DNA of 49,548 nt from IMG/VR virus record IMGVR_UViG_3300050821_005532, positions 1-49,548 of that record. One strand, 5' to 3'. The position numbers were made by a program, and so were the translations under genes. Source of the DNA: a virus. Below, in pieces: positions 5,375-49,268 of the stretch (positions are counted from its first letter, which is position 1; each line of letters begins with the position of its first letter). The notes below the pieces were generated by a model. It was given only the letters and a program-made list of their open reading frames with translations. It ran no database searches and was not told the DNA's origin.

Positions 5375-6693
5375 GCATCCTGGGCCGCCTGGTGCAACGG
5401 CCATCGGCAGGGGTTGCGGAGCAGCGCACCCTGACGTCGTCCAACTTCGTGCCGCCGCCAGCCGTGGGCGTGCTGGACGACTACGTGGGCGTGCATCGCG
5501 CCATGTCCAACCTCACCGTCATGGCCTGCGTGCGGCTGTTGGCCGACACCATCGCCAGCCTGCCGTGGAAGGCGTACCGGCGGGACGGCAACGGGGTGCC
5601 GGTCGAGGTCAACCCGCAACCGGCCATTCTGCGCCAGCCCTTCCCAGGCTTCGACCTGTTCGAGTACAAGTGGCAGATGGTGGCGTCGCTGGCGCTGCGC
5701 GGCAACTTCTACGGCATGGTGACCAGCTGGGACAAGCTGATGCGGCCCACCGCGCTGCTGCCGCTGCACCCGGACTCGGTGTTCCTGGAACGCAGGCCGG
5801 ACATCCTGATGTGGTTCGACCCGATCTACCGGGTGATGGGCCAGCGGGTGCCGGAAGAGGACATGGTGCACATCCGCCGCTTCACCATGCCGGGCGAGCC
5901 GTGGGGGCTGAGCCCGGTGCGCCAGGCGGCGGTCGCCATTGGCATGGGGCTGGCTGCCGAGGAGTACGGCTATCGCTACTTCCGCGAGAGCGCGAACCCC
6001 AGCGGGATGCTGATGACCGATCAGGACCTGGACGACGCGGCGGTGACGCGCCAGCAGCAGGCGTGGATCGCCACCCACGGCGGGCGGCGACTGCCGGCCA
6101 TCCTCACCGGCGGCTTCAAGTGGCAGAACCTGACCATCTCGCCGGATGAGAGCCAGTTCCTGGAAACCCGCCGGTTCCAGCGCGGCGACATCGCGATGAT
6201 GTACGGGATACCGCCGCACATGATCGGCGACGTGGAGAAGTCCACCAGCTGGGGCACCGGCATCGAGCAGCAGACGATAGGCGCCATCACCTACACCTTC
6301 CGGGGCTGGACGTCGCCCATCGAATCCGTGTTCTCCTCCCTGCTGCCCAGCGGCCAGTACGTCCGGTTCGACTACAACAACCTGCTGCGCGGGGACATCA
6401 AGACCCGCTACGCCGCCTACGACCAGGCCATCCACAGCGGCTGGCTGAACGTGAACGAGGTGCGCAACCGCGAGCAGTTGGAGCCCATCGGCAAGACCGG
6501 CGACATCTACCTGCAGCCGGTCAACTACGCGCCGCTCGGCTTCATGCCCGCCGCGCCCGGTGCGCCGCTGCCCACCAAGCCGCCAGCGGAGCGGCCGGAT
6601 AGCGAGCCCATTGCCGGTGGTGAGCAGGACACCCAGGTCGCCGCCGGATACTACCCATACCCGCCGAACGGAAACGGCTACGCCCGACGATGA
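5371..6693 (+). CDS. Portal protein, HK97-like
   Basis: 440 residues. Family landmarks in order: VMACVRLLADTIASLPW near residue 50, the region around RGNFYGMV, GLSPVRQAA followed by a helix and YFRESANPSGML, then YGIPPHMIGDVEKSTSWG and the C-terminal helix region GDIKTRYAAY...NVNEVRNREQL. It forms the dodecameric ring at the capsid vertex through which DNA enters and leaves. The ATG overlaps the preceding stop, and the gene sits between terminase and prohead protease as usual. Identification is firm. Confidence 0.92.
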   Translation: MSILGRLVQRPSAGVAEQRTLTSSNFVPPPAVGVLDDYVGVHRAMSNLTVMACVRLLADTIASLPWKAYRRDGNGVPVEVNPQPAILRQPFPGFDLFEYKWQMVASLALRGNFYGMVTSWDKLMRPTALLPLHPDSVFLERRPDILMWFDPIYRVMGQRVPEEDMVHIRRFTMPGEPWGLSPVRQAAVAIGMGLAAEEYGYRYFRESANPSGMLMTDQDLDDAAVTRQQQAWIATHGGRRLPAILTGGFKWQNLTISPDESQFLETRRFQRGDIAMMYGIPPHMIGDVEKSTSWGTGIEQQTIGAITYTFRGWTSPIESVFSSLLPSGQYVRFDYNNLLRGDIKTRYAAYDQAIHSGWLNVNEVRNREQLEPIGKTGDIYLQPVNYAPLGFMPAAPGAPLPTKPPAERPDSEPIAGGEQDTQVAAGYYPYPPNGNGYARR

Positions 6694-6704
6694 AAGAGGA
6701 CACC

Positions 6705-8519
6705 ATGGACCACCGCAATCGCCTGAAGCTGATCGACGTTCCGGAGCGCCGTGCGCTGGCCCAACCGCTGGAACTGCGCAAGGACGCGGCCAGCGGCCAA
6801 CTGGTGATGGAGGGGTACGCCGCCACCTGGGAGCCGTACGACTGCTACGGCGGCCCGGAGCGCGGCGGCTGGGTGGAGCAGCTGGACAAGCGTGCCATGG
6901 ACCGCACGCTGGCCGAGAGCCCGGACCTGATGCTGCTGGTCAACCACGAGGGGCTGCCGCTGGCCCGGACCAAGAGCGGCAACCTGTTCCTCAGCACCGA
7001 CAGCCGCGGGCTGAAGATGCGGGCACTGCTGGACCCGAACGACCCGGACGTGCAGCGCATTGCGCCCAAGATGCAGAGCACTGAGGCCCGCAAGCCGCTG
7101 CTGGACGAGATGTCCTTCTCCTTCCGGGTCAAGGACCAGCAGTGGAACGACAGCTTCAGCCACCGGATGATCACCGAGCTGAGCCTGCAGAAGGGCGATG
7201 TCTCGGTGGTCAACTACGGGATGAACCCGAACACGCACGCCATCATGTCCACCGACGCGGTGGGCGCGCTGGCCAGCCTGTCCAACGAGGGCCTGTTGGA
7301 GGTGCGCAAGATGGACCGCACCCAACTGCTCGACGCCCTGCAGACGCTGCAGCGGGCCTGGCGCGCTACCGGCGCCGACGAGGACGAGCCGGACGACGAG
7401 GAGGAGAAGGCCTTCGCCGGTAAGAAGGCCGCACCGTTCAAGAAGGGCGGCGGCAAAGCCGACGACGACAACGAGGACGACGACGGCAAGCGCGGCACCA
7501 TGGTCAACTTCGACGGCAGCCACCTGCTGTACGAGGGGCAGTGCGTGACGTGCGCCAACGACCGGGCCACCGGCAAGTACGGCAACGTGAAGTACGCGGA
7601 CCCGGGCTACCTGGGCCCGGACGGCAAGCAGGCGCACGACGGCAACGGGGTGAAGCGCTACCCCATCGACGAGGCCCATGTGCAGGCCGCGTGGAGCTAC
7701 ATCAACATGCCCAAGAACCAGAAGGGTTACACCGCCGAGCAGCTGGCGTCGATCAAGAGCAAGATCAAGGCGGCGATGAAGGAGCATGGGCACGACGTGA
7801 GCGAGGACAAGGCGGTCGCCGCCGCCTACGTGGACGTGGTGCCGCGCATGATCGATCCCGGCATCAACAACGCCGACGTGTGCGCCGTCGAGGCGGTGCG
7901 CAGCATGACCGGGGGCACCACCCTGGTCGCGGTGATGAGCGACGGCAGCCGGGTGCCGCTGCCCTCCTTCCGGCAGTCGGGCCAGTTCGTCAGCTCACCC
8001 ACACCCGGTGCCCCGATCCAGGGCAGCGGGCGCGGCTGGGCCGGACCCGGATACGACTGGCAGCCGCTGGGCGACAACCCGGATCCGCACTACGCCCCGT
8101 ACACCACCGACGCACCGCAGCCGGGACAGACCGAGGTCAACCCGGCCAACATGCCCGCACTGGACACCTTGCATGTGGCGGCCAGCCCGCACGCCGGAGA
8201 CGTGCCGGTGCCGGGACCGGGAGATACCGGCGCCGGCACCTTCGTGCCGAACTTCCAGAACGGCTCGCACCTGCGCGCCAAGGGCGAGGAGCCGGACGAC
8301 GACGAGCCGGACGACGACGAGGACGACCAGCGCGCCATGGCCAACCCGCCGCAGCAGGTGGATGACGTGCACGACGACGAGGACGACGTGGACGGCATGG
8401 GCGACGAGCAGATCACCCTGAATGTGGACGACCGGCTGCGCGAGCTGCGCAAGGAAGGCGAACTGCCTGATCTGCCCACGCTCGACCAGGCGGCAGGGTA
8501 CTTGCGGCAACTGGCGTGA
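6705..8519 (+). CDS. HK97-type prohead protease fused to an extra domain and acidic tail
   Basis: 604 residues, about three times the usual protease. Residues 1-215 are the herpes-type assembly protease with catalytic His81 (LLVNHEGLPLAR) and Ser137 (EMSFSFRV). Residues about 225-262 are Asp/Glu-rich. Residues about 266-375 form a second module (KYADPGYLGPDGK...YPIDEAHVQAAWSYIN) that I know as a separate domain in phage proteins. The C-terminus has two more acidic runs. The start has AAAGAGGA four bases upstream; an ATG at 6690 overlapping the portal stop is the alternative. The acidic tail could serve as scaffold, since no separate scaffold gene is visible. Confidence 0.85.
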   Translation: MDHRNRLKLIDVPERRALAQPLELRKDAASGQLVMEGYAATWEPYDCYGGPERGGWVEQLDKRAMDRTLAESPDLMLLVNHEGLPLARTKSGNLFLSTDSRGLKMRALLDPNDPDVQRIAPKMQSTEARKPLLDEMSFSFRVKDQQWNDSFSHRMITELSLQKGDVSVVNYGMNPNTHAIMSTDAVGALASLSNEGLLEVRKMDRTQLLDALQTLQRAWRATGADEDEPDDEEEKAFAGKKAAPFKKGGGKADDDNEDDDGKRGTMVNFDGSHLLYEGQCVTCANDRATGKYGNVKYADPGYLGPDGKQAHDGNGVKRYPIDEAHVQAAWSYINMPKNQKGYTAEQLASIKSKIKAAMKEHGHDVSEDKAVAAAYVDVVPRMIDPGINNADVCAVEAVRSMTGGTTLVAVMSDGSRVPLPSFRQSGQFVSSPTPGAPIQGSGRGWAGPGYDWQPLGDNPDPHYAPYTTDAPQPGQTEVNPANMPALDTLHVAASPHAGDVPVPGPGDTGAGTFVPNFQNGSHLRAKGEEPDDDEPDDDEDDQRAMANPPQQVDDVHDDEDDVDGMGDEQITLNVDDRLRELRKEGELPDLPTLDQAAGYLRQLA

Positions 8520-8695
8520 GGCAATACCAGGTCCGCTGCGACGAGTGGACCGGCACCGTGTGGATGCAGCGGGTGACCGCCCCCATGTCACAGAAGGACG
8601 CCGAGAAGATCTGCCTGAACATGGCCAATGAGACCTCCTCCGGTGGCACCCGGTACCGCAACATCGCCGTCTGCTACGACATGCCCGTGCAGTGA
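8516..8695 (+). CDS. Small hypothetical protein (GTG start)
   Basis: A 59-residue reading frame starting with GTG inside the protease stop (GTGA) and ending in TGA inside the GTG start of the next gene. It reads MRQYQVRCDEWTG... and contains three Cys residues and a central helix rich in Asp, Glu and Lys. Exact 4-nt coupling at both ends is the main evidence that it is real. No family recognised. Confidence 0.55.
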   Translation: MRQYQVRCDEWTGTVWMQRVTAPMSQKDAEKICLNMANETSSGGTRYRNIAVCYDMPVQ

Positions 8696-10017
8696 CCTAC
8701 GACGCCGACTGGTACGGCTGGCAGGCCGGTGGCTCGGCGGCGTCCGCTGCCGTGGTGGCGCCCCTGCTCAACCGGCTGCTGCACCCCATCACCGTCCTCG
8801 ACGTGGGCTGCGGCGTCGGCACCTGGGCGGCGCAGTGGCCGCAGTCGGTCGGGGTGGACGGCGACTACGTGCCGCGCCGCCAGCTGCGCATCCCGGCAGA
8901 CCGGTTTCTGCCGCGCGACCTGACCAAGCCGCTGGACCTGGGACGCCGGTTCGACATGGCGCTGTGCCTGGAAGTGGGCGAGCACCTGCGGGCGCGGCAC
9001 GCCAAGACGCTGGTGGCCAGCCTGTGCAAGCACGCCGACGTGGTGGTGTTCTCCGCAGCGGTGCCCGGTCAAGGCGGCTGCGGCCACGTCAACGAGCAGT
9101 GGCCGTCCTATTGGGCCAAGCTGTTCGCCCAGCACGGCTACCACCCGTTCGACATGCTGCGGGAGCACCTGTGGTGGGACCAGCGGGTGGAGTGGTGGTA
9201 CCGGCAGAACCTGCTGGTCTTCGCCACCGGCAAGCGCGGCTGGCCCATCCCCACCGGCACGCTGGACCTGGCGCAACCGGCGATGGTACTGCCGGAGCTG
9301 GGCAAGCAACTGCGGGCCACCGTCTGCATCCCGTGGCGCCCCACCCCCTCTCGGCTGGCGGCGTTCGACCGGGTGCAGCGGTTCTGGAAGATGTTCGGCT
9401 GGCCGGTGGTGACCGCCGACAGCGACACCGAGATCTTCTCGCTGGCACAGGCGCGCAACAACGCCGTCAGCAAAGCCAAGACGGACGTGGTGGTGGTGTC
9501 CGACGCCGACACGCTGTGCGACCCGCTGAACATCCTGCGCGCGGTGGCCGACCCGGTGGGGGTCTGGTGGCCGTTCACCAAATACCGCATCCTGCTGCCG
9601 CAGTACCTGGACTACCCGCTGGCAGAGCTGGCCAGCGTGCCCTACGTCAACACCTGGGACGGCGACGGCGTGGCGGGCGTGGGCGGCTGCATCGTCGCCA
9701 GCACCAAGGAGTGGTGGCGGCTGGGCGGCCAGCCCTCCGAGTTCATCGGCTGGGGCTGGGAGGACGTGGCCTTCACCACGGTGGTGCGCACCCTCTCCAA
9801 GGCGCGGCGGCTCAAGGGCTGCGTCTACGCCTTCGAGCACAACACCCAGGCCGAGAAGTACATCGACGCGGTGGCCGACAGCCCCGGCTGGGACCGCGAC
9901 GGCGAACGCAACAAGCCGCTGTATGAGCCGTACCGGCACGCGGATGGCAGGGCGTGGGTGATGCGCGACCTGATCCGGCGCAAGGTTGAGGCGCGGCGCG
10001 CTGGCGTGTCGGCTTGA
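8692..10017 (+). CDS. Methyltransferase-glycosyltransferase fusion protein
   Basis: 441 residues in two domains. Residues 1-195 are a class I methyltransferase (VLDVGCGVGTW with Asp37, then MALCLEVGEHL). Residues about 205-441 are a GT-A glycosyltransferase: VCIPWRPTPSRLAAF, SLAQARNNAV, the metal-binding DAD at 271-273 (VVVSDADTLCD), and GWGWEDVAF near the C-terminus. This half is paralogous to the free-standing protein at 46935-47564. It lies between prohead protease and capsid, so capsid glycosylation with methylated sugar is a reasonable inference. DNA-linked substrates are the alternative. GTG start, 4-nt overlap upstream. Confidence 0.8.
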   Translation: MTYDADWYGWQAGGSAASAAVVAPLLNRLLHPITVLDVGCGVGTWAAQWPQSVGVDGDYVPRRQLRIPADRFLPRDLTKPLDLGRRFDMALCLEVGEHLRARHAKTLVASLCKHADVVVFSAAVPGQGGCGHVNEQWPSYWAKLFAQHGYHPFDMLREHLWWDQRVEWWYRQNLLVFATGKRGWPIPTGTLDLAQPAMVLPELGKQLRATVCIPWRPTPSRLAAFDRVQRFWKMFGWPVVTADSDTEIFSLAQARNNAVSKAKTDVVVVSDADTLCDPLNILRAVADPVGVWWPFTKYRILLPQYLDYPLAELASVPYVNTWDGDGVAGVGGCIVASTKEWWRLGGQPSEFIGWGWEDVAFTTVVRTLSKARRLKGCVYAFEHNTQAEKYIDAVADSPGWDRDGERNKPLYEPYRHADGRAWVMRDLIRRKVEARRAGVSA

Positions 10018-10183: not shown

Positions 10184-11641
10184 ATGACCATTATCGAGGA
10201 CCGCCTCGACGTACCCGAGGACCGCGATCCACTCAACCCCGCCGGTGGCCTGGAGGCTTACCTGAAGCGGATGCTGCAGCGCCGTGGCCAGCTTGCGCGC
10301 CAGCGCGAGGGCATTCAGGAGAAGGCCGAGGCGGTGCTGCTTGAGGCACGCAGCGCCGGGCGTCCCACCCTGAACGTCCAGGAGGACATCGAGCTGCGCA
10401 ACTACACCAAGCAGATGAAGGAGCTCGGCGACGACATCACCGGCCTGGACGAGCGCATCGAGGAGACGCGCGCCGAGGTCGAGCGCACCGGCAGCATCAC
10501 CCGCAACCTGGTCGCGATCCGCGAGGCCGAGAACACGGTTACTCGGGTCAAGGAGCAGGAGATCTACCAGAAGGGCGACCCGCGCCGGTCCTACATGCAG
10601 GACCTCATCAAGCTGACGCTGAACATCGACGACACCGGCGAGTCCCGGGAACGCCTGATGCGGCACGCCCAGGACGTGCGCACCAGCCCGGACTACAAGG
10701 AGTTCCGCGACCTGTCCCGGGTGGACGGCAGCGGTGGCTACGCCGTCCCGCCCGCGTGGCTGATGAACCAGTACATTGAGCTGGCACGTCCGGGCCGGGC
10801 ATTCGCCAACCTGGTGCAGCGCCAGCCGTTGCCCGGTGGAACCGACAGCATCAACATCCCGAAGTTGCTGACCGGTACCAGCACGGCCATCCAGACCGCC
10901 GACAACGCGCCTGTTGCCGACGTGGACCTGACGGACACCTTCATCAACGCACCCGTGCGGACGATCAGCGGCCAGCAGGGTGTGGCCATCCAGCTCATCG
11001 ACCAGAGCCCGATCGCGTTCGATGACGTGGTGTTCCGTGACCTGGTGGCAGACCACGCCAGCCAGACCGACCGCCAGTGCCTCTCCGGTACCGGCGCCAA
11101 CGGCCAGGTGCTCGGCGTGCGGTTGACCCCGAACATCGGTTCGGTACCGGCCAGCGCCGTGACCACGGCGGGCGTGTACTCGGCGATTGCCAACGCGATC
11201 CAAACCGTGCACACCACCCGCTTCCTGCCGCCCGAGGTGATCGTGATGCACCCGCGCCGGTGGGGCTGGTTCCTCTCGCTGCTGGACGGGCAACAGCGCC
11301 CGCTGTTCCTGCCCGCCGCCAACAACCCGTTCAACGCCGCCGGTATCCTCACCGACGTGGCCAGCCAGCAAGTGGTCGGCCAGATGCACGGGTTGCCAGT
11401 CGTCACCGATCCAAACTTGGAGACGAACCTGGGCACCGGCACCAACGAAGACCCGATCTACGTGCTGCGTGCATCGGACATCGTGTTGTGGGAGTCGGGC
11501 GTGCGTGCCCGCGTGCTGCCGGAGACCAAGGCCGCCAACCTGACGGTCCTCCTGCAGATCTACAACTACCTCGCCTTCTCGGCTGCGCGGTACCCGCAGT
11601 CGGTCGTCGAGATCACCGGCCTGACCGCACCGACGTTCTAA
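10184..11641 (+). CDS. Major capsid protein, HK97 fold
   Basis: 485 residues. Residues 1-150 are charged and helical (RMLQRRGQLARQREGIQ through ELGDDITGLDERIEETRAEVER), resembling the scaffolding delta domain that the prohead protease removes in HK97. The mature part starts near GGYAVPPAWLMNQYIELARP and has the typical order TDSINIPKL...GQQGVAIQLIDQSP, IVMHPRRWGWFLSLLD, GLPVVTDPN and a C-terminal strand LLQIYNYLAFSAARYPQSV. GAAGGA lies seven bases before the ATG. Identification is firm; the cleavage site was not determined. Confidence 0.92.
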   Translation: MTIIEDRLDVPEDRDPLNPAGGLEAYLKRMLQRRGQLARQREGIQEKAEAVLLEARSAGRPTLNVQEDIELRNYTKQMKELGDDITGLDERIEETRAEVERTGSITRNLVAIREAENTVTRVKEQEIYQKGDPRRSYMQDLIKLTLNIDDTGESRERLMRHAQDVRTSPDYKEFRDLSRVDGSGGYAVPPAWLMNQYIELARPGRAFANLVQRQPLPGGTDSINIPKLLTGTSTAIQTADNAPVADVDLTDTFINAPVRTISGQQGVAIQLIDQSPIAFDDVVFRDLVADHASQTDRQCLSGTGANGQVLGVRLTPNIGSVPASAVTTAGVYSAIANAIQTVHTTRFLPPEVIVMHPRRWGWFLSLLDGQQRPLFLPAANNPFNAAGILTDVASQQVVGQMHGLPVVTDPNLETNLGTGTNEDPIYVLRASDIVLWESGVRARVLPETKAANLTVLLQIYNYLAFSAARYPQSVVEITGLTAPTF

Positions 11642-14454: not shown

Positions 14455-14503
14455 ACGCTGGGATTCTGTGCGCGGGCCATCCCTACCCGAACAAGGAGGA
14501 CAA

Positions 14504-15106
14504 ATGACCACAGTTACGCCACCCACGGTGATCAGCGATGTTCAGGAAGTCGCGGCACCTAGTCCTAAGATCACCGGCGGCGTGCTACTCGCGCCCTTGG
14601 GCACCGCGCTGCCCACGGACGCGGTAACGCCACTGGACCCCGGATTCATCACCCTCGGCCGCGTCTCCGACGCCGGTGTGGACCGCACTGAGGAGCGCCC
14701 GAACACCGAGATCAACGACTGGGGTGGCGACCTGATCGCCGTGCTGCAGGACAAGTACGGCATCACCCTCAAGTTCAAGCTGCTGCAGTTCGTCAACGCC
14801 GACGTGGCCAAGGCCGCACACGGCACCGACAACGTGACGGTGACACCGGCCACCAGCACCACCGGCACCGGCATCACGTCCAAGCTGAACGCGCAGCTGC
14901 TCGACTTCGGCAGCTGGGTCATCGACGCCTACTACATGCAGATGAGCATGAGGCTGGTGGTGCCCTATGGCCGTCTGACCCTCGTCGGGCCGCTGACCTG
15001 GGTGCACAAGGCGCTGGCCGCTTACGATTTCACGTTGAAACCGTTCCCGGACACGTTCAATAACCATGCGTACGAATATCTCAACGATGGAGTACTTGCA
15101 CCGTGA
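14504..15106 (+). CDS. Major tail protein (tail tube)
   Basis: 200 residues. Preceded by the strongest ribosome site in the window (AAGGAGGA at 14493-14500), as expected for a protein made in large amounts. Pattern: an N-terminal strand GGVLLAPLGT, then PGFITLGRVSDAGVDRTEERP...INDWGGD typical of siphovirus tube proteins, and a C-terminal strand YDFTLKPFPD. It precedes the chaperone pair and tape measure in the usual order. The stop overlaps the next GTG. Confidence 0.8.
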   Translation: MTTVTPPTVISDVQEVAAPSPKITGGVLLAPLGTALPTDAVTPLDPGFITLGRVSDAGVDRTEERPNTEINDWGGDLIAVLQDKYGITLKFKLLQFVNADVAKAAHGTDNVTVTPATSTTGTGITSKLNAQLLDFGSWVIDAYYMQMSMRLVVPYGRLTLVGPLTWVHKALAAYDFTLKPFPDTFNNHAYEYLNDGVLAP

Positions 15107-15609: not shown

Positions 15610-16004
15610 TGCTGGCGTCGGTCATCAGGAAGTACTGGCACGCGCTGGTCCGGGACATCATCGCTCTCGGCTACCGCGTCAGCGATATGTTCACCACCCT
15701 GACGTTCGGAGAAATGGTGTCCATCGTCGTGGGCGCACACCCGCAGACCTCGGTGCGGTTCTTCCTGGACGGCGGCTGGTCCCGCGAGGCGCACCTGCTG
15801 GCCAACATGCAGGAACGCGACGCCGGAATCGCCAAGATCACCCAGCCCTACCCGCGACCGGGCGTGGATCAGCGGACACACGCACCCAAGCCGGGCGGCT
15901 TCTTCCAGGCCGACGTGATGACCTGGGACGAGTTCGACGAGAAGCAGCTCAAGCGATACGCGCAGAGCCAGAAGGTGGGCGCTAACCGGGTGCGGACGAT
16001 ATGA
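15609..16004 (+). CDS. Tail assembly chaperone, downstream frame (gpT-like extension)
   Basis: 131 residues from the ATG in TGATG, or the C-terminal part of a -1 frameshift product with the preceding gene. The frame is open from about 15555, across the whole overlap, as expected for a programmed frameshift. Begins MLASVIRKYWHALVRDIIALGY and ends in a basic tail. The stop overlaps the tape measure start (ATGA). Confidence 0.7.
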   Translation: MLASVIRKYWHALVRDIIALGYRVSDMFTTLTFGEMVSIVVGAHPQTSVRFFLDGGWSREAHLLANMQERDAGIAKITQPYPRPGVDQRTHAPKPGGFFQADVMTWDEFDEKQLKRYAQSQKVGANRVRTI

Positions 16005-19000
16005 CCGATCCCAGCGTAGGCGCGGAACTCTGGGTATCAGTCCTGCCCACCCTGCAAGGTCTGCAGGAGCGCTTCCGCCAGGCCGGCATCATCGCCGGGG
16101 ACGCGATGGGCCGCTCGGCCACCGAGAGCCTGACCCGCGTGCTGGCCGGTGCATCGGCGCAAGGCGTGGCACAGCATGGAGCGAAGACCGGCACGGAGTT
16201 CGCCCGCGGCTTCTCCGAGCAGGTCGCCTTCGGGATCAACGACACCTTCGAGAAACAGATCCCGGCATCGTTCCAGCGCGGCATGCGAACGGTGAAGTCG
16301 GCGTTTCCCACGCTGGCCCAGGAGATCGGGGGGCAGTTTGAATCGGCGCTGACCGCCCGCATCTCCGGTGCCGGTTCCTTCCGTGCGTTGCTCAATAACC
16401 CGGCCATCAGGACCATCGCGCACCAGACCGGGCAGCAGTTCCACCAGGAGTTCATCAACACCTTTGAGCAGGGCCTGGTGCCCTCCATCGCGGCCAGCCT
16501 GAGTAAGACGACGGGCCTGGGCGCGACCGCCGCCACCAACTTCGCCAAGTCGTTCCAGAACGGGCTGGCGCCGGAGCTGGGCAAGATCATCTCCAACATC
16601 CCGGTCCTCTCGTCCTTCGCGCCCCTGTTCAGCGGCATGGGCAAGGACGCCTCGGCGCTGTATAACGCGGCGTACAAGGAGGAAGCCGACAAGCTGGCGC
16701 CGGGCCTGAAGCCGTCGTACGACAAGGTCTACGCCAACATGGCCGACAAGGCGGCGGCAAGTGGGGCGCTGGCCGGAAAGCTGTTCAGCGGGGCCCTCTC
16801 CGCTGGCATCATCACCGCCGGTGAACTCGCCGTACACGCACAGGCCAAGATTCTCGAGTACGCCAACAAGGAGATCGCGGCGTTCGCCAAGGTCGGCAAG
16901 GAGGCAGCCGACACCCTAATGGATGGGTTCACCTCCCTCCTCGAAGGCAAAATGCCCAACGTCATGGCTGCCTTCAACGTGGTGGAGGAGGGCTTCAAGA
17001 CCGCGTTCGAGGTGCCGCTGACGGCGATCAACACCCTGATAGACGACACCGTGGGGCACATCCCATTGCTGGGCGCCCAGGTCAAGATGGTGCTGGGGGA
17101 GGCCGAGCAGGCGTTCGGCGCGGTGTTCGCCATCTTCGACGAGTTCAAGGGCTTGGCCGGCGAATACATGTCGTCGCTGCTGGAAGTCGGCAACACCTAC
17201 CTGGAGGTGTCCCGCAAGATCGCGGCCAGCACCCTGGATCCGGAGAACATCGAGGGCCTGACCGCCGCCGTGCGCGACATTATGGACTCCGGCGCCATCG
17301 TGCACCTGGACGATGTGTCCGAAGCCATCGGGCGTCTCAACAGCAACATCAAGGACCTCTCGCCCGAGCAGCTGAAAGAGCTGACCACCAACTTCGCCGA
17401 GATGGAGGAGATTCTCGGCCACTTCGACGCCACCAAGTTCGCCGGGGTGATCAACGCCTGGAACGTGGGCAGCGACAAGGCCAACGACATGCTCACGATC
17501 CTGGGCAACACCGCCCGGCTCACCGGCATCTCGATGGACCAGATGATCAGCGAGATGGAGCAGGTCGGCCCGGCCATGCGTGCCTTCGGGTACACCGCCG
17601 AGCAGGCGGGCACCTTCTTCGCGCGGATGGCCCAGGAGGGCGAGCCCGCACGCCGCGCGGTCTTCATGTGGACCCAGGCGTTCAAGGAGGCCACCAAGTC
17701 CGGCGAGGACCCGAAGTCGTGGCTGAACGACCAGATCATCGGCATTAAGCAGTTGATGGATCGCGGCGAGATGAACGAAGCCGCGAAGATGTTCGAGAAG
17801 TCGTTCGGCCAGCGCGCCACCCCGCTGCTGTTGGAGGACATCAAGAAGGGCATCCTCGACCTGCCCAGCGTGATGAAGAGTTTGGAGGGCTTGGAGACAC
17901 CCGCCAAGGAAGCGGTCGAGGCCACCCAGAGCCTGGACGACGCCCTGGAAAAGCTGAGCCAGCAGGCCAAGGCCACGCTGGCACCGCTGGGCGAGAACAT
18001 GGCCCACGGACTGGTGGACGCCAGCAACAACATCTCGCACTGGCTGACCGAGAACCAGGACAAGATCCTGCACTGGGGCACCGAGGTCGCGACCTACATC
18101 ATGCAGGCGGCGGGCAGCATCGTGCAGTTCATCGGCGACTCGCTGGTGCTGGTATCCGCGTTCCTCAACCCGCTCAAGGAGATGGTGATCGGCACCATCT
18201 CGGCCATCATCGCGCCGTTCCAGCTGCTGCTTAGCGTCCTCAACGACCTGCCGTTCATCGGCGACAAGTTCAAGGGCGCCAAGGACGCCATCGACCAGGT
18301 GCAGGGCAGCCTGTCCAAGATCGACGATTTCGACTTCACGCACATCGCCGAGGATCTCGGTCACCGGATGCAGGGCGTCGCGCGCAACGATATTCCGCAG
18401 GTGACAAGGGCCATACAAGATGCCAGCGGCGCGATGGAGGCCAACCTGCAGGTCACCTCGGCATTCACCGAGAAGATCAACGGCGAGCTGAAGCCCGCAT
18501 TCGACCAGATCAAGAACGCGCAGGGCGAGCTGATGGGCGGCACCGCCGAGCAGCCGTTCAACCTCAAGCTGTTGGGCACCCCGGCGCAGTGGCAGGACGT
18601 CACGAACAAGCTGCACAACATGGGCATCGACATCAAGACGAACACCGAGGGCGTTATCACCGCCATCGAGTTCGCCAACAAAGAGGCCCATGACAAGTGG
18701 GACGAGTGGTACAAGGAAGCCGCCAAGAACCCGAAGCATGTGCCGGTGGAGATGGACCCGCAGCGCGAGGGCAAAGACGTCAAGACATCCGGCGAGCTGG
18801 TGGAGCCCGGCAGCGTCGATGTCACGCTGAATCCCAAGGTCGGCCCCGGCAAGGGCGTGGTGGTGGACCCGAGCACCGGCCAGACGGTGCCGGAGTACGG
18901 GCCCGCTGGTCCGAGTGGCCCGGTGCGTACACCGGTCGGCGGGGCGCCGTCGTCGCTCGGCGCCCCCGGCGCCCCGGTTGCCGGTGACACAGCACTGGTC

Positions 19001-22000
19001 GCCGCGCTGCGGGCGAAGGGCTTCACCCCGGATCAAATCCGGCTCATCCAGGGCTTCAGCCAGGTCGAAGGTCGAAACCCGTCCGGTGTTCCAACACTGG
19101 GCTTCGTCGATAGCGAGATCGGCGGCTCTGATCTACAAACCCACGTCAACGCACTGGCCGACCAGTTCCAGAGGCGCGCCTCCGTAGCTGGTCCATACCC
19201 GGCTGGCGGCACCGATCAGGACAAAGCGGCGTGGATCGCCAGGCTCGTCGGACAGAGTGGCGTAGTCGATTACCACGGTGACCAGCAGCCAGCAGATTAC
19301 GTCCAACGAGTTGTCGCTGCTATGCAGGGCGTTCCTACAGTTCCCGGCAGCGGTCCCGTTGTCCCGGGCGCCCCGGCAGCCCCGGCTCCACTGGGAACCG
19401 CTGGCAATCCGCTCTTTGTCATTGGGCCGGCAACTCCCGCTGGACCGCCCCCACCGAGCGCACCCTCGGCGGTCATCACCCAGCAGTCGGGTGGCGTTCC
19501 GGCAGCACCGGCGCCCGCTCCCGGTCCGGCCCCGGTACCCGTCCCCACACCGGGCAGCCTCGGTATCCCAACGCTGCCCGGCGTCACTGCCCCGGCTGCC
19601 CCGGCCGCTCCGGCTGCACCGGCGGCTACCGGACCAAAGGCCAAGCCCGGCTTGGCATCCGAATTGTTGACGGGTCCGGATGGGAAGTTGCATTGGTACA
19701 ACGGTGAGGGGGTGGAGGTCTTTGGGCCGAGCGATGCCAAGCATGGTCAGCCTGTAACCCCCGCTGCACCGGCTGCTCCGGCTGCTCCGGCTGCTCCGGC
19801 AGCACCCGCCGCTCCTGGTGGTGCTCCGGGAGCATCCACCATCGCCGCACCCGTAGGTGGCTGGACGGACCACGGCGGCTGGGGCTACTACCACGCGCCG
19901 GATGGTCAGGTCTATTGGGTGCCCGCCGGGACAGCGCGCCCCACCGTTTCCAGCGCCGGACCGCCGGAGGCGCCCGGCGGCTACGAGTGGGTGCCGCAGG
20001 AATCCACCGAGCAGGGCCAAACCGTCCTGGTACTCACCAAGCAGGGTGGTGTCGGCAGATTCGGCGCCGTGCAGGTGCCCCCCTCCATTCAGATGGCTTC
20101 CGGCCCACCAGCCGCCGGTACGCCGGGCGGTCCACCGAAACCGGTGGTCGCGGGTCTGCCGCCGGGCGTGGTCGCGCTGACGGACGAGGAGTTCAACAAG
20201 GCGCGTGGCGGCCTGCCCACCCCTTCCGGCCCACCAGGCACCAAGACCTGGGTGCCGTACACGCAGGACGGCAAGAAGTATTGGGTGCCCGGCGATGCCA
20301 GCGGCGTCCCCATTGTGGGTCCGATGCCCAGCACCACCGCCGCCGCCGTCACTCCTCCACCCGCAGCGCCGGAGGGGGGGAAGCCGGGCACGGTTGCGCA
20401 CGGCGGCGCCAGCACCGCACCCAAGTCGCCCTCCGAGTTCTGGGGCGGTTCGGGCGCGTTCCCGCTCGGTGGCTGGGGAAGGGGCGGCGAAGGCAGGAAG
20501 CTGGGTAGCTTCTTCGAGAACCAGGGATTGGTCGACCCGCTCATCGCGCTGGGCGGGGAGATGCCTGGACTGCCAACAAGGTGGGGCAGCGGCAAAGCTT
20601 CGACATCCCTTGCCTACACCGCGCTACCCAGCGCCAGCCCCCCGGAAAGTTCACCGGACAAGGGATTCTGGTCGACGTTCGGGCACGCCGCGAGCGAGCG
20701 CTCGAAGAAGATCCTCTCCGACATCGCCGGCTGGCGGCTTGGCGGCGCGGTCGGCTTCCAGGGGGGCGGCGAGATCGACTTCTCCGGCGAACCCATAGAC
20801 CCCAACGACCCGTTGGGGCACCGCCCCAACAGCGATATGCCCGGCGACCTCGGTCCCAACGCGCAAATCTGGAAGAAGCTGCGCGAGTCGGCCGGTGGCC
20901 AATACCCGATCACCATGAGCCTCGATCCGGGCGAAACCCGCGACGTGCATGAGATAACCCACGAGGCGCCGGGCCAGAACATCCTGGGATCAGCCGACCC
21001 GGCGGTGTGGATTCCCAAGCTCAAGCGGCTGTTCGGTTTCCAGCGCGGCGGGATCGCGCAGGCCGATGTCGGTGGCCGCGACCCCGACGACTGGAACACC
21101 ACCGGGGGTGGAGGATCCTACCCACCCGACTGGTGGCCGTTCGCCACGCCGGGCGCCCATTTCGACAGGCCGGTCCCGCCGTTCCCCATGCCCCTCCCGC
21201 CCAGCAGCGCCTGGCACAAGGCCATACCGTTCAACGGCGGCGGCGACATCCCGTGGCTGCCGGGTAGCAGGAAGGGGCAGGACAGCATCTTCGCCATGCT
21301 GGCGCCCAACGAGCATGTGTGGACCGATGACGAGGTGGCCGCAGCGGGTGGGCACGGCGCGATGTACGGGATGCGCGCCGCCGTCAGGAGCGGCAAGAAG
21401 CCCAAGTTCTTCGACGCAGGCGGTCCAGGCGCCAGCTTGCAGCCGCTGCAGACACAGGGCGCGCAGGTGGACACCATCGCGCTGGGCTACGCGGTGGAGC
21501 AGCAGTTCGGCATCACCAACCAGGGCTTCTACCGCGCGCCGGACGCACCCAACGAACATGCCAGCGGGCTTGCCGTGGACATCATCGTGGGCACCGACAA
21601 CCCGGAGGGCACCACCGTCAAGGACTGGGTGATGGCCAATGCCGGGCAGTACGGCGTCGAGTACGCCATCTGGCAGAACACGCTGTGGTACCCGAACGGC
21701 CACAGCGAGGGCTTCGGCGCCAACCCGAGCGATGAGACTCAGAGCCACCGCAACCACGTTCACGTCCGCACCGTGGGTGGCGGCTTCCCGCCACGCGGCG
21801 GTCCGGGCGCGGGCGCTGGGCAACCCCGCACTGGAAGCGTCTCGTCGACGCCCGCGCCCGCTGCCGTCGCGCTCCTGGGAGCCGGGTACCAGGGCGGCGA
21901 GTCGGCACCGGCCGGTGCGGCTGCCGGTGACCCGAGCCGGGGGACGACCGGCACCGGCGGATCGACGCCGTACACGCCGATGGATTCCAGCGGTGCCAAT

Positions 22001-23248
22001 GCCGGTAGTCCCGGTGGTCCGGTGATCGGGCCCGGTGGCCCCCAGTCACCCGGCTATCCGAGCCCGTGGGGTCCGGCGCCGCCGGGCGTGGCCTACGACC
22101 CGCGCCAGCAGGCGGACTGGACCGCCCGGACCGAGCAGTGGCAGCTGGGCATCCAGACAGCCCGGCAGAACGTCACCGACCGCTACGGCGAGCTGGACCA
22201 GGCATTGCAAGACCAGGCCGCAGCCCACGAAGCCGCCGCCGCGCAGCAGCGCGAACTCTCCCGGCTAGAGGGCCTCTACAACAGCCCGGAGCTGATCAGG
22301 TCGCACGCCGAGGAACTCGACAAGCAGAAGAAGGCCGTGTCCGACGCCAACCAGAAAGAAGGGGAGGAAAACGCCAAGGTAGTCAAGGCGAGGCAGGAGT
22401 ATGGGCAGGCCACCGCCGAGCAGACTATCAAGGAGCAGGAGGCGCCCCCCAAGCCGCCCACGGAGGAGAAGGGCAAGGAGGACAAGGACGCCAAGCAGCT
22501 GGGCGCCGGCCTGGTCAAAGGCATCTTCCAGGAGCTGGGATTCCCGGACGTGTTCGGCAAGCCGTTCACCGAGTGGGGGATCTGGAAGCTGGCTATGGGT
22601 GGCCTCGGTGTCGGCGCGGGCCTGATGCAGAACATGGGCCAGGTGCAGACCGGCATGTTCGCCCCGCCCGGCAGCCCCGGCGCGCAGCTCCCCTCAAGCC
22701 TGTTCAGTGGCCTGCTCGGCGGCGTGGGCGCCCCCGGCCTCGGCAAGGACCTGTTCGGCAAGCAGCCCAGGCCCGGTGAGGGGACGCCCGGCGTCTCAGG
22801 CCAGCCGCCGACCGGCGGTGGCACCCAACACTTCACGCCGCCCCCGCTGCCGGTGGCCGGTGCCCCGGCTCCATCTGCCGGTGCCCCCGGCAGTCCTGTT
22901 CCGCAAGCGCCGTCGCAGCCTCGCTCGGCTGGTCCCGGCAACCCCCCGCCCGGCGTCACACCGGGCTCTGGTCAGGGTGGTTGGGGAATGTGGGGCGCCG
23001 GTAATGCCCTGTTCGGCGCCGGTGATGGCGCCGCCACCACGAGCTGGCTGTCCGCTTCTCAGGCTCCGGCAGAGCAGCCGCTCGGCACACCGGGCGGCGT
23101 GGGCGGCACACTGCACGTCACCGTCAACAACAGCCCGTTCGCGCCCACCCCGCCCATCGCGGACTCGATCAAGGAAATCGGCAACTCCACCAGCGCCACC
23201 GCCGTCTCCGGCGGCGCACCGTTAGCCACCGTCCCGGGCGGCGGCTGA
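16001..23248 (+). CDS. Tape measure protein with embedded hydrolase-like domains
   Basis: 2415 residues, the largest gene. Residues 1-750 are helical with hydrophobic stretches (about 700-745: SIVQFIGDSLVLVSAF...IISAI-like). Residues about 997-1109 resemble a lysozyme-like module (LRAKGFTPDQIRLIQGFSQ...GFVDSEIG). Residues 1110-1500 are Pro/Ala-rich linkers carrying DGKLHWYN, DGQVYWVP and DGKKYWVP units at 1227, 1301 and 1423. Residues about 1830-1923 match a zinc peptidase-like/ARB_07466-type domain with His1853 and Asp1860 (HASGLAVD) and His1916, 1919, 1921 (HRNHVHV). Residues about 2037-2147 are coiled coil. It sets tail length; the hydrolase parts may locally open the cell wall during DNA injection. 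Confidence 0.9.
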   Translation: MTDPSVGAELWVSVLPTLQGLQERFRQAGIIAGDAMGRSATESLTRVLAGASAQGVAQHGAKTGTEFARGFSEQVAFGINDTFEKQIPASFQRGMRTVKSAFPTLAQEIGGQFESALTARISGAGSFRALLNNPAIRTIAHQTGQQFHQEFINTFEQGLVPSIAASLSKTTGLGATAATNFAKSFQNGLAPELGKIISNIPVLSSFAPLFSGMGKDASALYNAAYKEEADKLAPGLKPSYDKVYANMADKAAASGALAGKLFSGALSAGIITAGELAVHAQAKILEYANKEIAAFAKVGKEAADTLMDGFTSLLEGKMPNVMAAFNVVEEGFKTAFEVPLTAINTLIDDTVGHIPLLGAQVKMVLGEAEQAFGAVFAIFDEFKGLAGEYMSSLLEVGNTYLEVSRKIAASTLDPENIEGLTAAVRDIMDSGAIVHLDDVSEAIGRLNSNIKDLSPEQLKELTTNFAEMEEILGHFDATKFAGVINAWNVGSDKANDMLTILGNTARLTGISMDQMISEMEQVGPAMRAFGYTAEQAGTFFARMAQEGEPARRAVFMWTQAFKEATKSGEDPKSWLNDQIIGIKQLMDRGEMNEAAKMFEKSFGQRATPLLLEDIKKGILDLPSVMKSLEGLETPAKEAVEATQSLDDALEKLSQQAKATLAPLGENMAHGLVDASNNISHWLTENQDKILHWGTEVATYIMQAAGSIVQFIGDSLVLVSAFLNPLKEMVIGTISAIIAPFQLLLSVLNDLPFIGDKFKGAKDAIDQVQGSLSKIDDFDFTHIAEDLGHRMQGVARNDIPQVTRAIQDASGAMEANLQVTSAFTEKINGELKPAFDQIKNAQGELMGGTAEQPFNLKLLGTPAQWQDVTNKLHNMGIDIKTNTEGVITAIEFANKEAHDKWDEWYKEAAKNPKHVPVEMDPQREGKDVKTSGELVEPGSVDVTLNPKVGPGKGVVVDPSTGQTVPEYGPAGPSGPVRTPVGGAPSSLGAPGAPVAGDTALVAALRAKGFTPDQIRLIQGFSQVEGRNPSGVPTLGFVDSEIGGSDLQTHVNALADQFQRRASVAGPYPAGGTDQDKAAWIARLVGQSGVVDYHGDQQPADYVQRVVAAMQGVPTVPGSGPVVPGAPAAPAPLGTAGNPLFVIGPATPAGPPPPSAPSAVITQQSGGVPAAPAPAPGPAPVPVPTPGSLGIPTLPGVTAPAAPAAPAAPAATGPKAKPGLASELLTGPDGKLHWYNGEGVEVFGPSDAKHGQPVTPAAPAAPAAPAAPAAPAAPGGAPGASTIAAPVGGWTDHGGWGYYHAPDGQVYWVPAGTARPTVSSAGPPEAPGGYEWVPQESTEQGQTVLVLTKQGGVGRFGAVQVPPSIQMASGPPAAGTPGGPPKPVVAGLPPGVVALTDEEFNKARGGLPTPSGPPGTKTWVPYTQDGKKYWVPGDASGVPIVGPMPSTTAAAVTPPPAAPEGGKPGTVAHGGASTAPKSPSEFWGGSGAFPLGGWGRGGEGRKLGSFFENQGLVDPLIALGGEMPGLPTRWGSGKASTSLAYTALPSASPPESSPDKGFWSTFGHAASERSKKILSDIAGWRLGGAVGFQGGGEIDFSGEPIDPNDPLGHRPNSDMPGDLGPNAQIWKKLRESAGGQYPITMSLDPGETRDVHEITHEAPGQNILGSADPAVWIPKLKRLFGFQRGGIAQADVGGRDPDDWNTTGGGGSYPPDWWPFATPGAHFDRPVPPFPMPLPPSSAWHKAIPFNGGGDIPWLPGSRKGQDSIFAMLAPNEHVWTDDEVAAAGGHGAMYGMRAAVRSGKKPKFFDAGGPGASLQPLQTQGAQVDTIALGYAVEQQFGITNQGFYRAPDAPNEHASGLAVDIIVGTDNPEGTTVKDWVMANAGQYGVEYAIWQNTLWYPNGHSEGFGANPSDETQSHRNHVHVRTVGGGFPPRGGPGAGAGQPRTGSVSSTPAPAAVALLGAGYQGGESAPAGAAAGDPSRGTTGTGGSTPYTPMDSSGANAGSPGGPVIGPGGPQSPGYPSPWGPAPPGVAYDPRQQADWTARTEQWQLGIQTARQNVTDRYGELDQALQDQAAAHEAAAAQQRELSRLEGLYNSPELIRSHAEELDKQKKAVSDANQKEGEENAKVVKARQEYGQATAEQTIKEQEAPPKPPTEEKGKEDKDAKQLGAGLVKGIFQELGFPDVFGKPFTEWGIWKLAMGGLGVGAGLMQNMGQVQTGMFAPPGSPGAQLPSSLFSGLLGGVGAPGLGKDLFGKQPRPGEGTPGVSGQPPTGGGTQHFTPPPLPVAGAPAPSAGAPGSPVPQAPSQPRSAGPGNPPPGVTPGSGQGGWGMWGAGNALFGAGDGAATTSWLSASQAPAEQPLGTPGGVGGTLHVTVNNSPFAPTPPIADSIKEIGNSTSATAVSGGAPLATVPGGG
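19769..19815 (+). repeat. Short tandem repeat coding for Ala-Ala-Pro
   Basis: Three near-perfect copies of the 9-bp unit GGCTGCTCC lie back to back, continuing into related GCAGCACCC units. They encode an (AAP)n linker in the tape measure. A similar Ala-Pro run with different codons lies around 19590-19630. Such runs are prone to slippage, so linker length may vary between relatives. Confidence 0.6.
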
Positions 23249-46365: not shown

Positions 46366-46935
46366 GTGACAGTCACATTCATGGGCCAGAAGGAAATGCC
46401 TGTCGGCAAGCTGCATCCACACCCGGAGAACCCGAACCGTGGCGACGTGAACGCCATTACCGAGAGCCTGGAACAGCACGGCCAGTACCGCAGCGTGGTG
46501 GTCAACAAGGACGGCACCATCCTGGCCGGGCACCACGTCTGGCAGGCGGCCAAGGGCCTCAAACTCAAGACACTACGGGTGGACATGGTGGATGCCGACG
46601 AGACGAGCGCACGCAAGATCCTGTTGGCGGACAACAGGATTGCCGAGCTTGGCCCCGGCCCGGACATGGAAGCCCTGCTGGAGGTGTTGCTCAAGATCGA
46701 CACCCTGGAAGGCACCGGCTTCGACGAGGACTACGTGCAGATGCTGCAGGAGATGCTGGCCGGTGCGCCGGACCTGGACGAGTTGGAGAACGAAGCGGGT
46801 GGCCCGCTGGGCGACGAGGACTTCATGAGCCGCCTGCTGCTGGTGGTGGACACCCCGACGCTGGCGGCGTGGAAGAAGCACCGGGACGAGTTCGAGAACG
46901 ACACCACGGCGATGAACGCCCTGCTGGGCATCTGA
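46366..46935 (+). CDS. ParB-like nuclease-domain protein
   Basis: 189 residues. The ParB/sulfiredoxin-type fold is seen in residues about 10-95: MPVGKLHPHPENPNRGD, AITESLEQHGQYRSVVVNKD, GTILAGHHVWQAAKGLK, followed by SARKILLADNRIAELG. The C-terminal half is acidic and helical. Such proteins are frequent in phages near DNA-modification or methyltransferase genes, and some are nucleases or CTPases. GTG start without a ribosome site: TACGCT ends seven bases upstream, which would suit a leaderless mRNA. First gene of the 7-deazaguanine cluster. Confidence 0.75.
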   Translation: MTVTFMGQKEMPVGKLHPHPENPNRGDVNAITESLEQHGQYRSVVVNKDGTILAGHHVWQAAKGLKLKTLRVDMVDADETSARKILLADNRIAELGPGPDMEALLEVLLKIDTLEGTGFDEDYVQMLQEMLAGAPDLDELENEAGGPLGDEDFMSRLLLVVDTPTLAAWKKHRDEFENDTTAMNALLGI

Positions 46936-47564
46936 TGCGGGTTGCCGTCTGCATCCCGTGGCGGGCGCAGCCCACCCGGCTGCCCGCCTTCTACCGCGCC
47001 ATGGAGTTCTGGGCAGACTACCCGGTCTACCTCGGCGACAGCGAACCCACGCAGCCCTTCCACCGCAGCCAGGCGCGCAACAACGCGGTGAAGTCGGCGG
47101 CGGCGGAAATCGTCATCATCGCGGACGCCGACACGGTGTGTGAGATGCCCGCGCTGCGGCGGGCGGTGGACCTGGCCAACGGCGGTGCCGTGGTCTACCC
47201 CTTCACCCGCTACCGGGCGATGCCAGCCGAGGCGGTGGCCTACGACCTGGACGACCTGTACGTGGTGGAACCGTGCTTCACCAAGTACGACGCGGCCGGC
47301 GGCATCCTGGTGTGCGCGTCCGATCTGTTCTGGTGGCTGGGCGGCTACGACGAGCGCTTCGGCGCGGTGTGGGGCTACGAGGACAAGGCGTTCAAGGCAG
47401 CCGCCGAGACACTGGCGGCGGTGGAACGGGTGGAGGGCATCGCCTGGTCGTTCGACCACGAGAACGACAGGGAACCCACCGCGGCCACCACCCGCAGCCG
47501 CTGGAAGTTGTACCAGTTCGCCTACGGCAAGCCCGAGGTCATGCGCGAGCTGCTGAAGCGATGA
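46935..47564 (+). CDS. GT-A family glycosyltransferase-like protein
   Basis: 209 residues. Motifs in order: VAVCIPWRAQPTRLPAFYRA, QARNNAVKSAAAE, the metal-binding DAD at residues 64-66 (IIADADTVCE), YPFTRYRAM, LFWWLGGYDERF and WGYEDKAFKAA. The same series appears in the C-terminal half of the fusion protein at 8692-10017, so the two are paralogues. Being inside the DpdA-QueD-QueE operon, it may glycosylate modified DNA or act on the virion. The ATG overlaps the ParB-like stop. Confidence 0.75.
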   Translation: MRVAVCIPWRAQPTRLPAFYRAMEFWADYPVYLGDSEPTQPFHRSQARNNAVKSAAAEIVIIADADTVCEMPALRRAVDLANGGAVVYPFTRYRAMPAEAVAYDLDDLYVVEPCFTKYDAAGGILVCASDLFWWLGGYDERFGAVWGYEDKAFKAAAETLAAVERVEGIAWSFDHENDREPTAATTRSRWKLYQFAYGKPEVMRELLKR

Positions 47565-47911
47565 TGCTGGCGCTGGTGATCCACCCCATTCTCGGTCCGT
47601 TGGAGGTGCAGCCCTTCGACCTGACCGGCTTCGTGCAGCGGCTACAGGGCATCATCGGCGCCGACCTGGACAGCGCCAGCACCGAGGTGGGCAACGTGCT
47701 GTTCTGGTACACCCACATCTGGAGTGGCGCAATGCCGCCGCGCAACGACACCGCGACCAAGCTGTGGCACGAACTGAACCCCAGCGGGCGCACGGAGCCG
47801 GTGAACGGCTGGGTGCACTTCTACGGCACGGTGGTGATCAGCGGGCGCAAGGACGTGGACCTGCCCGACGACCTGCACCTGCCGGACGACATCAGCTGGG
47901 CGATACCGTGA
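47561..47911 (+). CDS. Unknown protein between glycosyltransferase and DpdA
   Basis: 116 residues, MM start overlapping the previous stop (ATGATG). Contains a hydrophobic N-terminus (LALVIHPILGPLEVQPFDL), a middle region rich in Trp and His (VLFWYTHIWSG), and an acidic C-terminus (DVDLPDDLHLPDDISW). Not a family I recognise. Tight coupling on both sides suggests it works with the DNA-modification enzymes. Confidence 0.55.
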   Translation: MMLALVIHPILGPLEVQPFDLTGFVQRLQGIIGADLDSASTEVGNVLFWYTHIWSGAMPPRNDTATKLWHELNPSGRTEPVNGWVHFYGTVVISGRKDVDLPDDLHLPDDISWAIP

Positions 47912-48813: not shown

Positions 48814-49268
48814 GCACCATTTCGGTACGTACCCACTTCGCCGCCGGGCATCGCATCCTCGGGCTCACCGGGCCGGGCGCCAAATGTCGTAATATCCACG
48901 GCCATACCTTCCACGTCACCTGGACCTACGCCCAGGATGTCGGCGACCCGCTGGAGTTCGGCGCCGTCAAAGAGAAGCTGCGCGCGATGATCGCCACGCT
49001 GTTCGACCACGGGTTCATCATCGACCGCGAGGACGAGTTCATCGGCTACCTGCGCGCCGGGAAGCTGAAGTACTACGCGCTGATCGGGCAGCCCACCACC
49101 GAGGCCATCGCCGCCGAGATCGCCAAGCACAGCCGACGCGCGCTGCCCAAGGCGCCGCTGCTCTCGGTCGAGCTGCGGGAGGGGCCGGACAACACGGCCA
49201 CCTGGTTCCCGTCGATATCCGACTCCGGGCCGCTGCCGCACGTCGTGCTGACGGGTGCGGGCACATGA
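48810..49268 (+). CDS. queD: 6-carboxy-5,6,7,8-tetrahydropterin synthase (QueD)
   Basis: 152 residues. Zinc ligands His14 (FAAGH), His30 and His32 (HGH) and the catalytic Cys26 (AKCRNIHGH) are all present, along with the DHG motif (FDHGF) and PTTEAIA before the last helix. It converts 7,8-dihydroneopterin triphosphate to carboxytetrahydropterin, the second step to preQ0. It follows DpdA with a 4-nt overlap and overlaps QueE in the same way. Function firm. Confidence 0.9.
   Translation: MSTISVRTHFAAGHRILGLTGPGAKCRNIHGHTFHVTWTYAQDVGDPLEFGAVKEKLRAMIATLFDHGFIIDREDEFIGYLRAGKLKYYALIGQPTTEAIAAEIAKHSRRALPKAPLLSVELREGPDNTATWFPSISDSGPLPHVVLTGAGT

What the first reader, a model, noticed from the sequence alone, without database searches (positions are those of the whole stretch)
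8692..10017. Methyltransferase-glycosyltransferase fusion between protease and capsid genes
One polypeptide joins a SAM methyltransferase to a GT-A glycosyltransferase, and the gene sits inside the head-assembly block just before the capsid gene. Glycosyltransferases and methyltransferases near structural genes have been linked to virion glycosylation in mycobacteriophages. A single-chain enzyme that adds and methylates a sugar would be a compact version.
Basis: partly seen in the sequence, partly recalled or inferred. Interest (0 to 1): 0.74.

Follow-up and report, generated by a model that had tools for sequence, protein, structure and literature searches.

The report
Phage sugar-adding and methylating fusion enzyme
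A probable mycobacterial phage carries, between its head protease and capsid genes, one protein that joins a methyl-adding enzyme to a sugar-adding enzyme, most likely to decorate its own particles with a methylated sugar, although the target is unproven and similar fusions are already known in related phages.

Summary
Window 8692-10017 is one intact 441-aa gene: an N-terminal SAM methyltransferase (Methyltransf_23) and a C-terminal GT-A glycosyltransferase (phrog_1721), coupled downstream of the head protease and just before the capsid gene. Four other uncultured phages have the whole fusion, a fifth a truncated one (60-69% identity); catalytic motifs are intact and both halves are under purifying selection. 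In phage L007 the two domains are separate genes at the same protease-capsid position, with two more glycosylation genes between them. Three phages with other head genes carry this methyltransferase type beside a related GT, just after or near the capsid gene. So the MT-GT pairing and its link to head genes are real. The acceptor is not shown: capsid and tail-tube C-termini match those of GT-free relatives, and the phage's 101-kb contig has no homologue of Che8 gp110, the GT type reported essential in Che8 and Corndog. A second GT lies beside 7-deazaguanine DNA-modification genes, but sister phages carry the fusion with no such genes found. MT-GT fusions are already on record (LittleE gp17) or present in Che8 gp108. 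Best reading: a compact variant of a known mycobacteriophage glycosylation cassette, probably adding a methylated sugar to a virion protein.

The parts
8692..10017 (+). MT-GT fusion gene, 441 aa, GTG start
8692..9234 (+). N-terminal class I SAM methyltransferase domain, aa 1-181
   Evidence: Methyltransf_23 E 2.3e-8; AF2 model matches TylM1/CalS10/KedS8 and O-methyltransferases at Z about 15
8794..8826 (+). SAM-binding motif I VLDVGCGVGTW, aa 35-45
   Evidence: V35, D37-G41, G43 and W45 invariant in all five full-length fusions
9235..9309 (+). interdomain linker, aa 182-206, variable in length and weakly constrained
9310..9981 (+). C-terminal GT-A glycosyltransferase domain, aa 207-430
   Evidence: phrog_1721 E 9e-30; K4CP chondroitin polymerase Z 16.2, beta4GalT1 and ppGalNAc-T about 14.5
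9502..9510 (+). DXD metal and nucleotide-sugar motif, D271-A-D273
   Evidence: invariant
9748..9765 (+). GWGWED motif, aa 353-358, like the WGxGGED motif of GT7 enzymes
   Evidence: invariant; Glyco_transf_7C match
9832..9843 (+). FEHN, aa 381-384, candidate third metal ligand His383
   Evidence: invariant; role inferred from GT7/GT27 enzymes
8516..8695 (+). 59-aa ORF overlapping the protease stop and the fusion start (GTGA overlap), implying translational coupling
6690..8519 (+). head maturation protease
   Evidence: phrog_7053 E 1e-57
10184..11641 (+). major capsid protein, C-terminus -ITGLTAPTF
   Evidence: phrog_2263 E 2e-78; C-termini compared
14468..15106 (+). probable major tail (tube) protein, C-terminus -NDGVLAP
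   Evidence: position and C-terminal similarity to the annotated Bipper and prophiGD43A-5 tail proteins
46935..47564 (+). second, free-standing GT of the same family, 35% identical to the fusion's GT half

Best explanation
A late-expressed bifunctional glycan-modifying enzyme. The GT-A domain uses a host nucleotide sugar to add one sugar to an acceptor, and the N-terminal domain O-methylates a sugar, capping the glycan. The acceptor is most likely a structural protein of the phage's own virion, so the gene is a one-gene condensation of the multi-gene MT plus GT cassettes of related mycobacteriophages. Shown here: the fusion, intact motifs, folds, purifying selection, and recurrent pairing of this MT with this GT family near head genes. 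Inferred: late expression, catalysis, that both domains act on the same glycan, order of reactions, sugar identity, O- rather than N-methylation. Least certain: that the acceptor is a virion protein, and which one.
For: Fusion conserved in four other full-length phage genes and one truncated by its contig end, with dN/dS about 0.4-0.45 in the closest pair for both halves. Split orthologues at the same protease-capsid site in L007 (MT 61%, GT 65%), together with a gene carrying a TylF-type sugar O-methyltransferase domain and another GT. In L057 and L058 an MT 44% identical to this one is followed by a GT7C-type double GT directly after the capsid gene, and L059 has the pair a little further downstream. 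The MT alone also sits in dense GT arrays of AT-rich phages L013-L015 and L017, in some with PglD-like acyltransferases (identified by eye). In L052 the MT half is truncated but a different MT gene is present in the cassette, as if a methyl step is kept. The GT family includes homologues of Che8 gp109, Wildflower gp35 and Baka gp16, all in cassettes with an MT or MT domain. Glycosylation of capsid and tail-tube proteins is reported for such phages (PMC11600133, PMC12363180, citing Freeman 2023). No promoter- or terminator-like site separates the gene from the head operon. Nearest structural matches are sugar methyltransferases among others, and protein or glycan GalNAc/Gal transferases.
Against: No homologue of Che8 gp110, reported essential together with Corndog gp38, was found in the 101-kb contig. 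Capsid and tail-tube C-termini are of the same type as in GT-free Bipper and prophiGD43A-5. In L003 and L005 the fusion lies upstream of the terminase genes rather than beside the capsid gene. Fold similarity does not fix substrate. The MT substrate could be something other than a sugar.
Confidence: 0.52

Rival explanations
1. The enzyme remodels a host envelope glycan or glycolipid (for example an O-methylated glycopeptidolipid-type sugar), changing the receptor and excluding superinfecting phages; its place in the head block is only a convenient late-expression site.
For: Phage GTs of this PHROG occur far from head genes in C1 mycobacteriophages and Gordonia Trax. In L003 and L005 the gene is not next to the capsid gene. 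The window's capsid and tail-tube C-termini do not differ in type from those of GT-free phages.
Against: Same MT plus GT pairing just after or near the capsid gene in other head lineages and in cluster J and O-type cassettes. No obvious membrane segment in the sequence, though no predictor was run.
Confidence: 0.18
2. The two domains share a chain but act on separate substrates, for example the MT on a protein or small molecule and the GT on a glycan; the fusion only couples expression.
For: Flexible, weakly constrained linker; class I MT folds are not substrate-specific.
Against: Repeated association of this MT and of unrelated MTs with GTs, including separate MT-GT fusions in LittleE gp17 and Che8 gp108.
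Confidence: 0.14
3. The fusion belongs to DNA hypermodification: it glycosylates and methylates 7-deazaguanine DNA made by the DpdA, QueD and QueE genes at the window's right end.
For: Those genes are present, and a second GT of the same family sits beside them (46935-47564), one gene away from DpdA.
Against: DpdA was found only in the window's own phage and not in the L005 phage (97-kb contig), the L003 phage or the other contigs that carry the fusion or its GT; Bipper has the Que/DpdA genes but no GT of this family; the fusion is about 37 kb away in the head operon.
Confidence: 0.07
4. A decaying or non-functional gene left by recombination between cassettes.
For: Related contigs show a truncated MT (L052) and duplicated GT fragments (L009-L011).
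Against: All catalytic motifs intact, purifying selection on both domains.
Confidence: 0.03

Closest known systems
LittleE gp17 (cluster J mycobacteriophage; PMC3706429)
   Same: 408-aa protein with N-terminal SAM methyltransferase (Methyltransf_23) and C-terminal GT domain, in a cassette inserted in the head block next to the capsid gene
   Different: Not the same GT family by sequence (best BLAST hits E above 0.01; profile alignment finds only the MT, weakly); lies after, not before, the capsid gene; embedded among three further GTs and a kinase
Che8 gp108-gp110 cassette (cluster F mycobacteriophage; virion glycosylation shown by Freeman 2023, paper not held; cited in PMC12363180)
   Same: gp109 is a distant relative of the fusion's GT half through the phrog_1721 family (Baka gp16, 70% identical to gp109, matches it); gp108 is itself a GT plus O-methyltransferase fusion
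   Different: TylF-type methyltransferase, opposite domain order, three genes at the right genome end; has gp110, for which the window phage has no homologue
Cluster O-type cassette (Wildflower gp33-36; Corndog type)
   Same: O-methyltransferase plus GTs inserted in the head block between portal and protease
   Different: Four separate genes; TylF-type MT
Cluster C1 GT (QBert gp235) and Gordonia Trax gp123
   Same: 35-37% identical to the fusion's GT half
   Different: Free-standing, no MT domain, not in the head block
L007, uncultured relative (IMG/VR)
   Same: MT 61% and GT 65% identical, same position between protease and capsid gene
   Different: Separate genes with two more glycosylation genes between them

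Membership tests
phrog_1721 GT-A glycosyltransferases | Profile match over the domain | tested here: met
   aa 208-430, E 9.2e-30
phrog_1721 GT-A glycosyltransferases | DXD motif and WG.ED acceptor/base motif | tested here: met
   D271-A-D273 and GWGWED 353-358 in all five full-length fusions
phrog_1721 GT-A glycosyltransferases | GT-A fold | tested here: met
   AF2 model; K4CP Z 16.2 over 180 residues, beta4GalT1 about 14.4
phrog_1721 GT-A glycosyltransferases | Sugar transfer activity and donor | not testable with these tools
   needs enzyme assay
Class I SAM-dependent methyltransferases | Motif I and Rossmann-like MT fold | tested here: met
   VLDVGCG.G.W; Methyltransf_23 above cut-off; Z about 15 to many MTs
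Sugar methyltransferases (TylM1, CalS10, KedS8, DesVI type) | Methylation of a sugar | not testable with these tools
   fold match only; genomic context supports it
Mycobacteriophage virion-glycosylation cassette (Che8/Corndog type) | GT homologous to cassette GTs | tested here: met
   GT half matches Baka gp16 (E 4e-9), which is 70% identical to Che8 gp109; phrog_1721 also matches Baka and WXIN
Mycobacteriophage virion-glycosylation cassette (Che8/Corndog type) | Homologue of the GT reported essential (Che8 gp110 / Corndog gp38) | tested here: not met
   no match in the 100,917-bp contig of this phage
Mycobacteriophage virion-glycosylation cassette (Che8/Corndog type) | Associated methyltransferase | tested here: met
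   fused MT domain; MT types differ between cassettes
Mycobacteriophage virion-glycosylation cassette (Che8/Corndog type) | Glycan on the C-terminus of capsid and tail-tube proteins | tested here: inconclusive
   window C-termini lack the terminal Ser seen on (candidate) tail-tube proteins of nine GT-bearing phages, but GT-free Xeno has it too, so it is not diagnostic; the glycan itself cannot be tested here
7-deazaguanine DNA-modification system | Consistent linkage of the fusion with DpdA | tested here: not met
   six other contigs carrying the fusion or its GT have no DpdA hit, one of them 97 kb; contigs may be incomplete

The most novel reading that the evidence does not exclude
A single polypeptide by itself installs a methyl-capped sugar on a phage virion protein, at a site other than the capsid and tube C-termini and without the GT set used by Che8 and Corndog: a one-enzyme protein glycosylation and capping system. 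In the L003 phage's 64-kb contig the fusion is the only GT that the two GT profiles used here detect.
Probability: 0.2. Interest if true: 0.65.

Novelty: new variant of a known kind. Interest (0 to 1): 0.4.

Why it matters
If it does decorate virions, it is a minimal enzyme for attaching and methyl-capping a sugar on a protein, useful as a simple model for phage particle glycosylation, which is reported to shield mycobacteriophages from antibodies. The repeated pairing and fusion of different methyltransferases with glycosyltransferases beside capsid genes suggests that methyl-capping is a common step of phage glycosylation that has received little attention.

Tried and rejected
A DNA search of known phages with the first 24 kb of the window found no relative, only a low-complexity match. 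A scan of the bacterial and archaeal genome collection with the fusion's two conserved patterns found no relative; only two short patterns were used, so this is weak. Solved-structure sequence search gave nothing useful. PADLOC and NCBIfam gave no match for the fusion, so a defence role has no support. A C-terminal Ser 'tag' as predictor of glycosylation was tested and dropped as non-diagnostic because the GT-free phage Xeno has it too. Whether fusion or split came first: the tree does not decide, and one origin of the fusion is neither shown nor excluded. The primary paper on virion glycosylation (Freeman 2023) is not in the library, so statements on it rest on citing papers and on memory. 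Corndog and Myrna records were not in the collection under the accessions tried; Wildflower stood in for the cluster O type.

Full report
What is there. The ORF at 8692-10017 is a single open frame of 441 codons starting with GTG. It starts four bases inside the end of a 59-aa ORF, which itself overlaps the end of the protease gene by four bases, so the three are probably translationally coupled. No promoter- or terminator-like site was found between 8400 and 10300. Pfam places a methyltransferase at aa 22-148 and sub-threshold GT2 and GT7C matches at aa 242-362; PHROGs places phrog_1721 'galactosyl transferase' over aa 208-430. The gene to the left is a head maturation protease and the one to the right is the major capsid protein.

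Real and functional by sequence. IMG/VR holds four further full-length fusions and one cut by its contig end, at 60-69% identity. In the five full-length sequences motif I of the methyltransferase (VLDVGCGxGxW) and the GT motifs DAD (271-273), GWGWED (353-358) and FEHN (381-384) are conserved, with their key residues invariant. Codon comparison shows purifying selection in both halves (window against L002: MT dN 0.29, dS 0.65; GT dN 0.17, dS 0.42) and a weakly constrained linker. An AlphaFold2 model (mean pLDDT 80.8) gives two domains: residues 1-181 match TylM1, CalS10, KedS8 and several O-methyltransferases at Z about 15, and residues 207-421 match chondroitin polymerase K4CP at Z 16.2 and beta4GalT1, B4GALNT1 and ppGalNAc-T at Z about 14-15. 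These are fold matches and do not fix substrates.

How it is built. In the L007 contig the same two domains are separate genes at the same place between protease and capsid gene: MT 61% and GT 65% identical, with a 489-aa gene (C-terminal TylF-type sugar O-methyltransferase domain, 54% identical to the Che8 gp108 C-terminal domain) and a GT2 gene between them. The fusion joint lies between the MT's conserved C-terminal motif and the GT's first residues. The fusion therefore looks like a condensed cassette, though the tree does not decide whether fusion or split is older.

Recurrent association. L008, L012, L045, L048 and L052 carry another MT gene plus a GT2-type gene plus this GT, beside the terminase genes. 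In L052 the MT half has been truncated but that other MT gene is present. L057 and L058, with other head genes, have a 44%-identical MT followed by a GT7C-type double GT directly after the capsid gene; L059 has the same pair about 2 kb after its capsid gene. Homologues of the MT alone lie in GT-rich arrays of AT-rich phages (L013-L015, L017), in some with PglD-like acyltransferases (identified by eye). Cluster J (Baka, LittleE) and cluster O-type (Wildflower) phages carry MT plus several GTs inside the head block. Not every relative keeps an MT nearby: none was seen beside the GT in L010 and L043.

Host and kin. The capsid protein is 43-57% identical to those of cluster J, Bipper-type and a M. 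abscessus prophage, so the phage is probably a Mycobacterium phage (inference). The window is essentially the same virus as positions 44773-94320 of the 100,917-bp contig G001, reversed.

What it acts on. For a virion protein: the repeated link to head genes, and reports that GT-bearing mycobacteriophages of these types glycosylate capsid and tail-tube proteins (PMC11600133, PMC12363180; the primary paper is not held). Against or open: no homologue of Che8 gp110 in the 101-kb contig; capsid and tail-tube C-termini match those of GT-free Bipper and prophiGD43A-5. A terminal Ser, seen on the tail-tube protein (or candidate) of Che8, Wildflower, Baka, LittleE, WXIN, Brujita, Trax, L057 and L058, is missing here, but GT-free Xeno has it too, so this is weak. 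Against DNA as target: DpdA was found only in the window's own phage among seven contigs, not in the 97-kb L005 contig. A second GT of this family beside ParB-like, DpdA, QueD and QueE genes at the window's right end is the better candidate for any DNA-linked role.

Precedent. The cluster J paper of 2013 (PMC3706429) described LittleE gp17 as a methyltransferase joined to a GT in the insertion next to the capsid gene. Its GT is not recognisably the same family by sequence, and its MT is only distantly alike. Che8 gp108 is a GT2 plus TylF-type methyltransferase fusion. The idea of a one-chain enzyme is thus not new in kind; the domain combination, and the near absence of other GTs in the genome, make it a new variant.

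Verdict. Observation confirmed; interpretation plausible but acceptor unproven. Personal estimates: about 0.9 that both domains are active enzymes, 0.75-0.8 that both act on glycans, and about 0.5 for the full best explanation, including a virion-protein acceptor.

Noticed in passing
46366-49546: 7-deazaguanine DNA-modification genes (DpdA-like phrog_7068, QueD, QueE) with a ParB-like gene and a second phrog_1721 GT beside them; a GTP cyclohydrolase-like gene appears to follow at G001:43246-43803 (by eye). Bipper has a similar Que/DpdA block but no such GT.
   Followed up: partly
19-714 and 1481-2143: Two 44%-identical paralogous methyltransferases of phrog_3382 upstream of the terminase genes; relatives (L012, L033, L036, L045, L048) also appear to carry one. 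Function unknown.
   Followed up: partly
L057 5953-7928, L058 5920-7886, L059 5992-7892: MT gene followed by a double GT (GT7C type plus Trax gp121 type) after the capsid gene in other head lineages; L057 and L058 capsid proteins end -IGS and candidate tail-tube proteins end -IGGS.
   Followed up: partly
L021 6172-7347: Che8 gp108, annotated only as glycosyltransferase, also has a C-terminal TylF-type O-methyltransferase domain.
   Followed up: yes
L052 5677-6696: Fusion with a truncated MT half and intact GT; a different MT gene stands in the same cassette, like non-homologous replacement of the methyl step.
   Followed up: partly
L009-L011: A GT fragment (residues about 191-263) duplicated just upstream of a complete GT copy.
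   Followed up: no
L051 4107-7778: TerL homology is split into three blocks within one long open frame of 1223 aa, which suggests inserted sequence (intein-like?) in the large terminase.
   Followed up: no
16001-23248: Tape measure protein of 2415 aa with a long Pro/Ala-rich low-complexity stretch.
   Followed up: no
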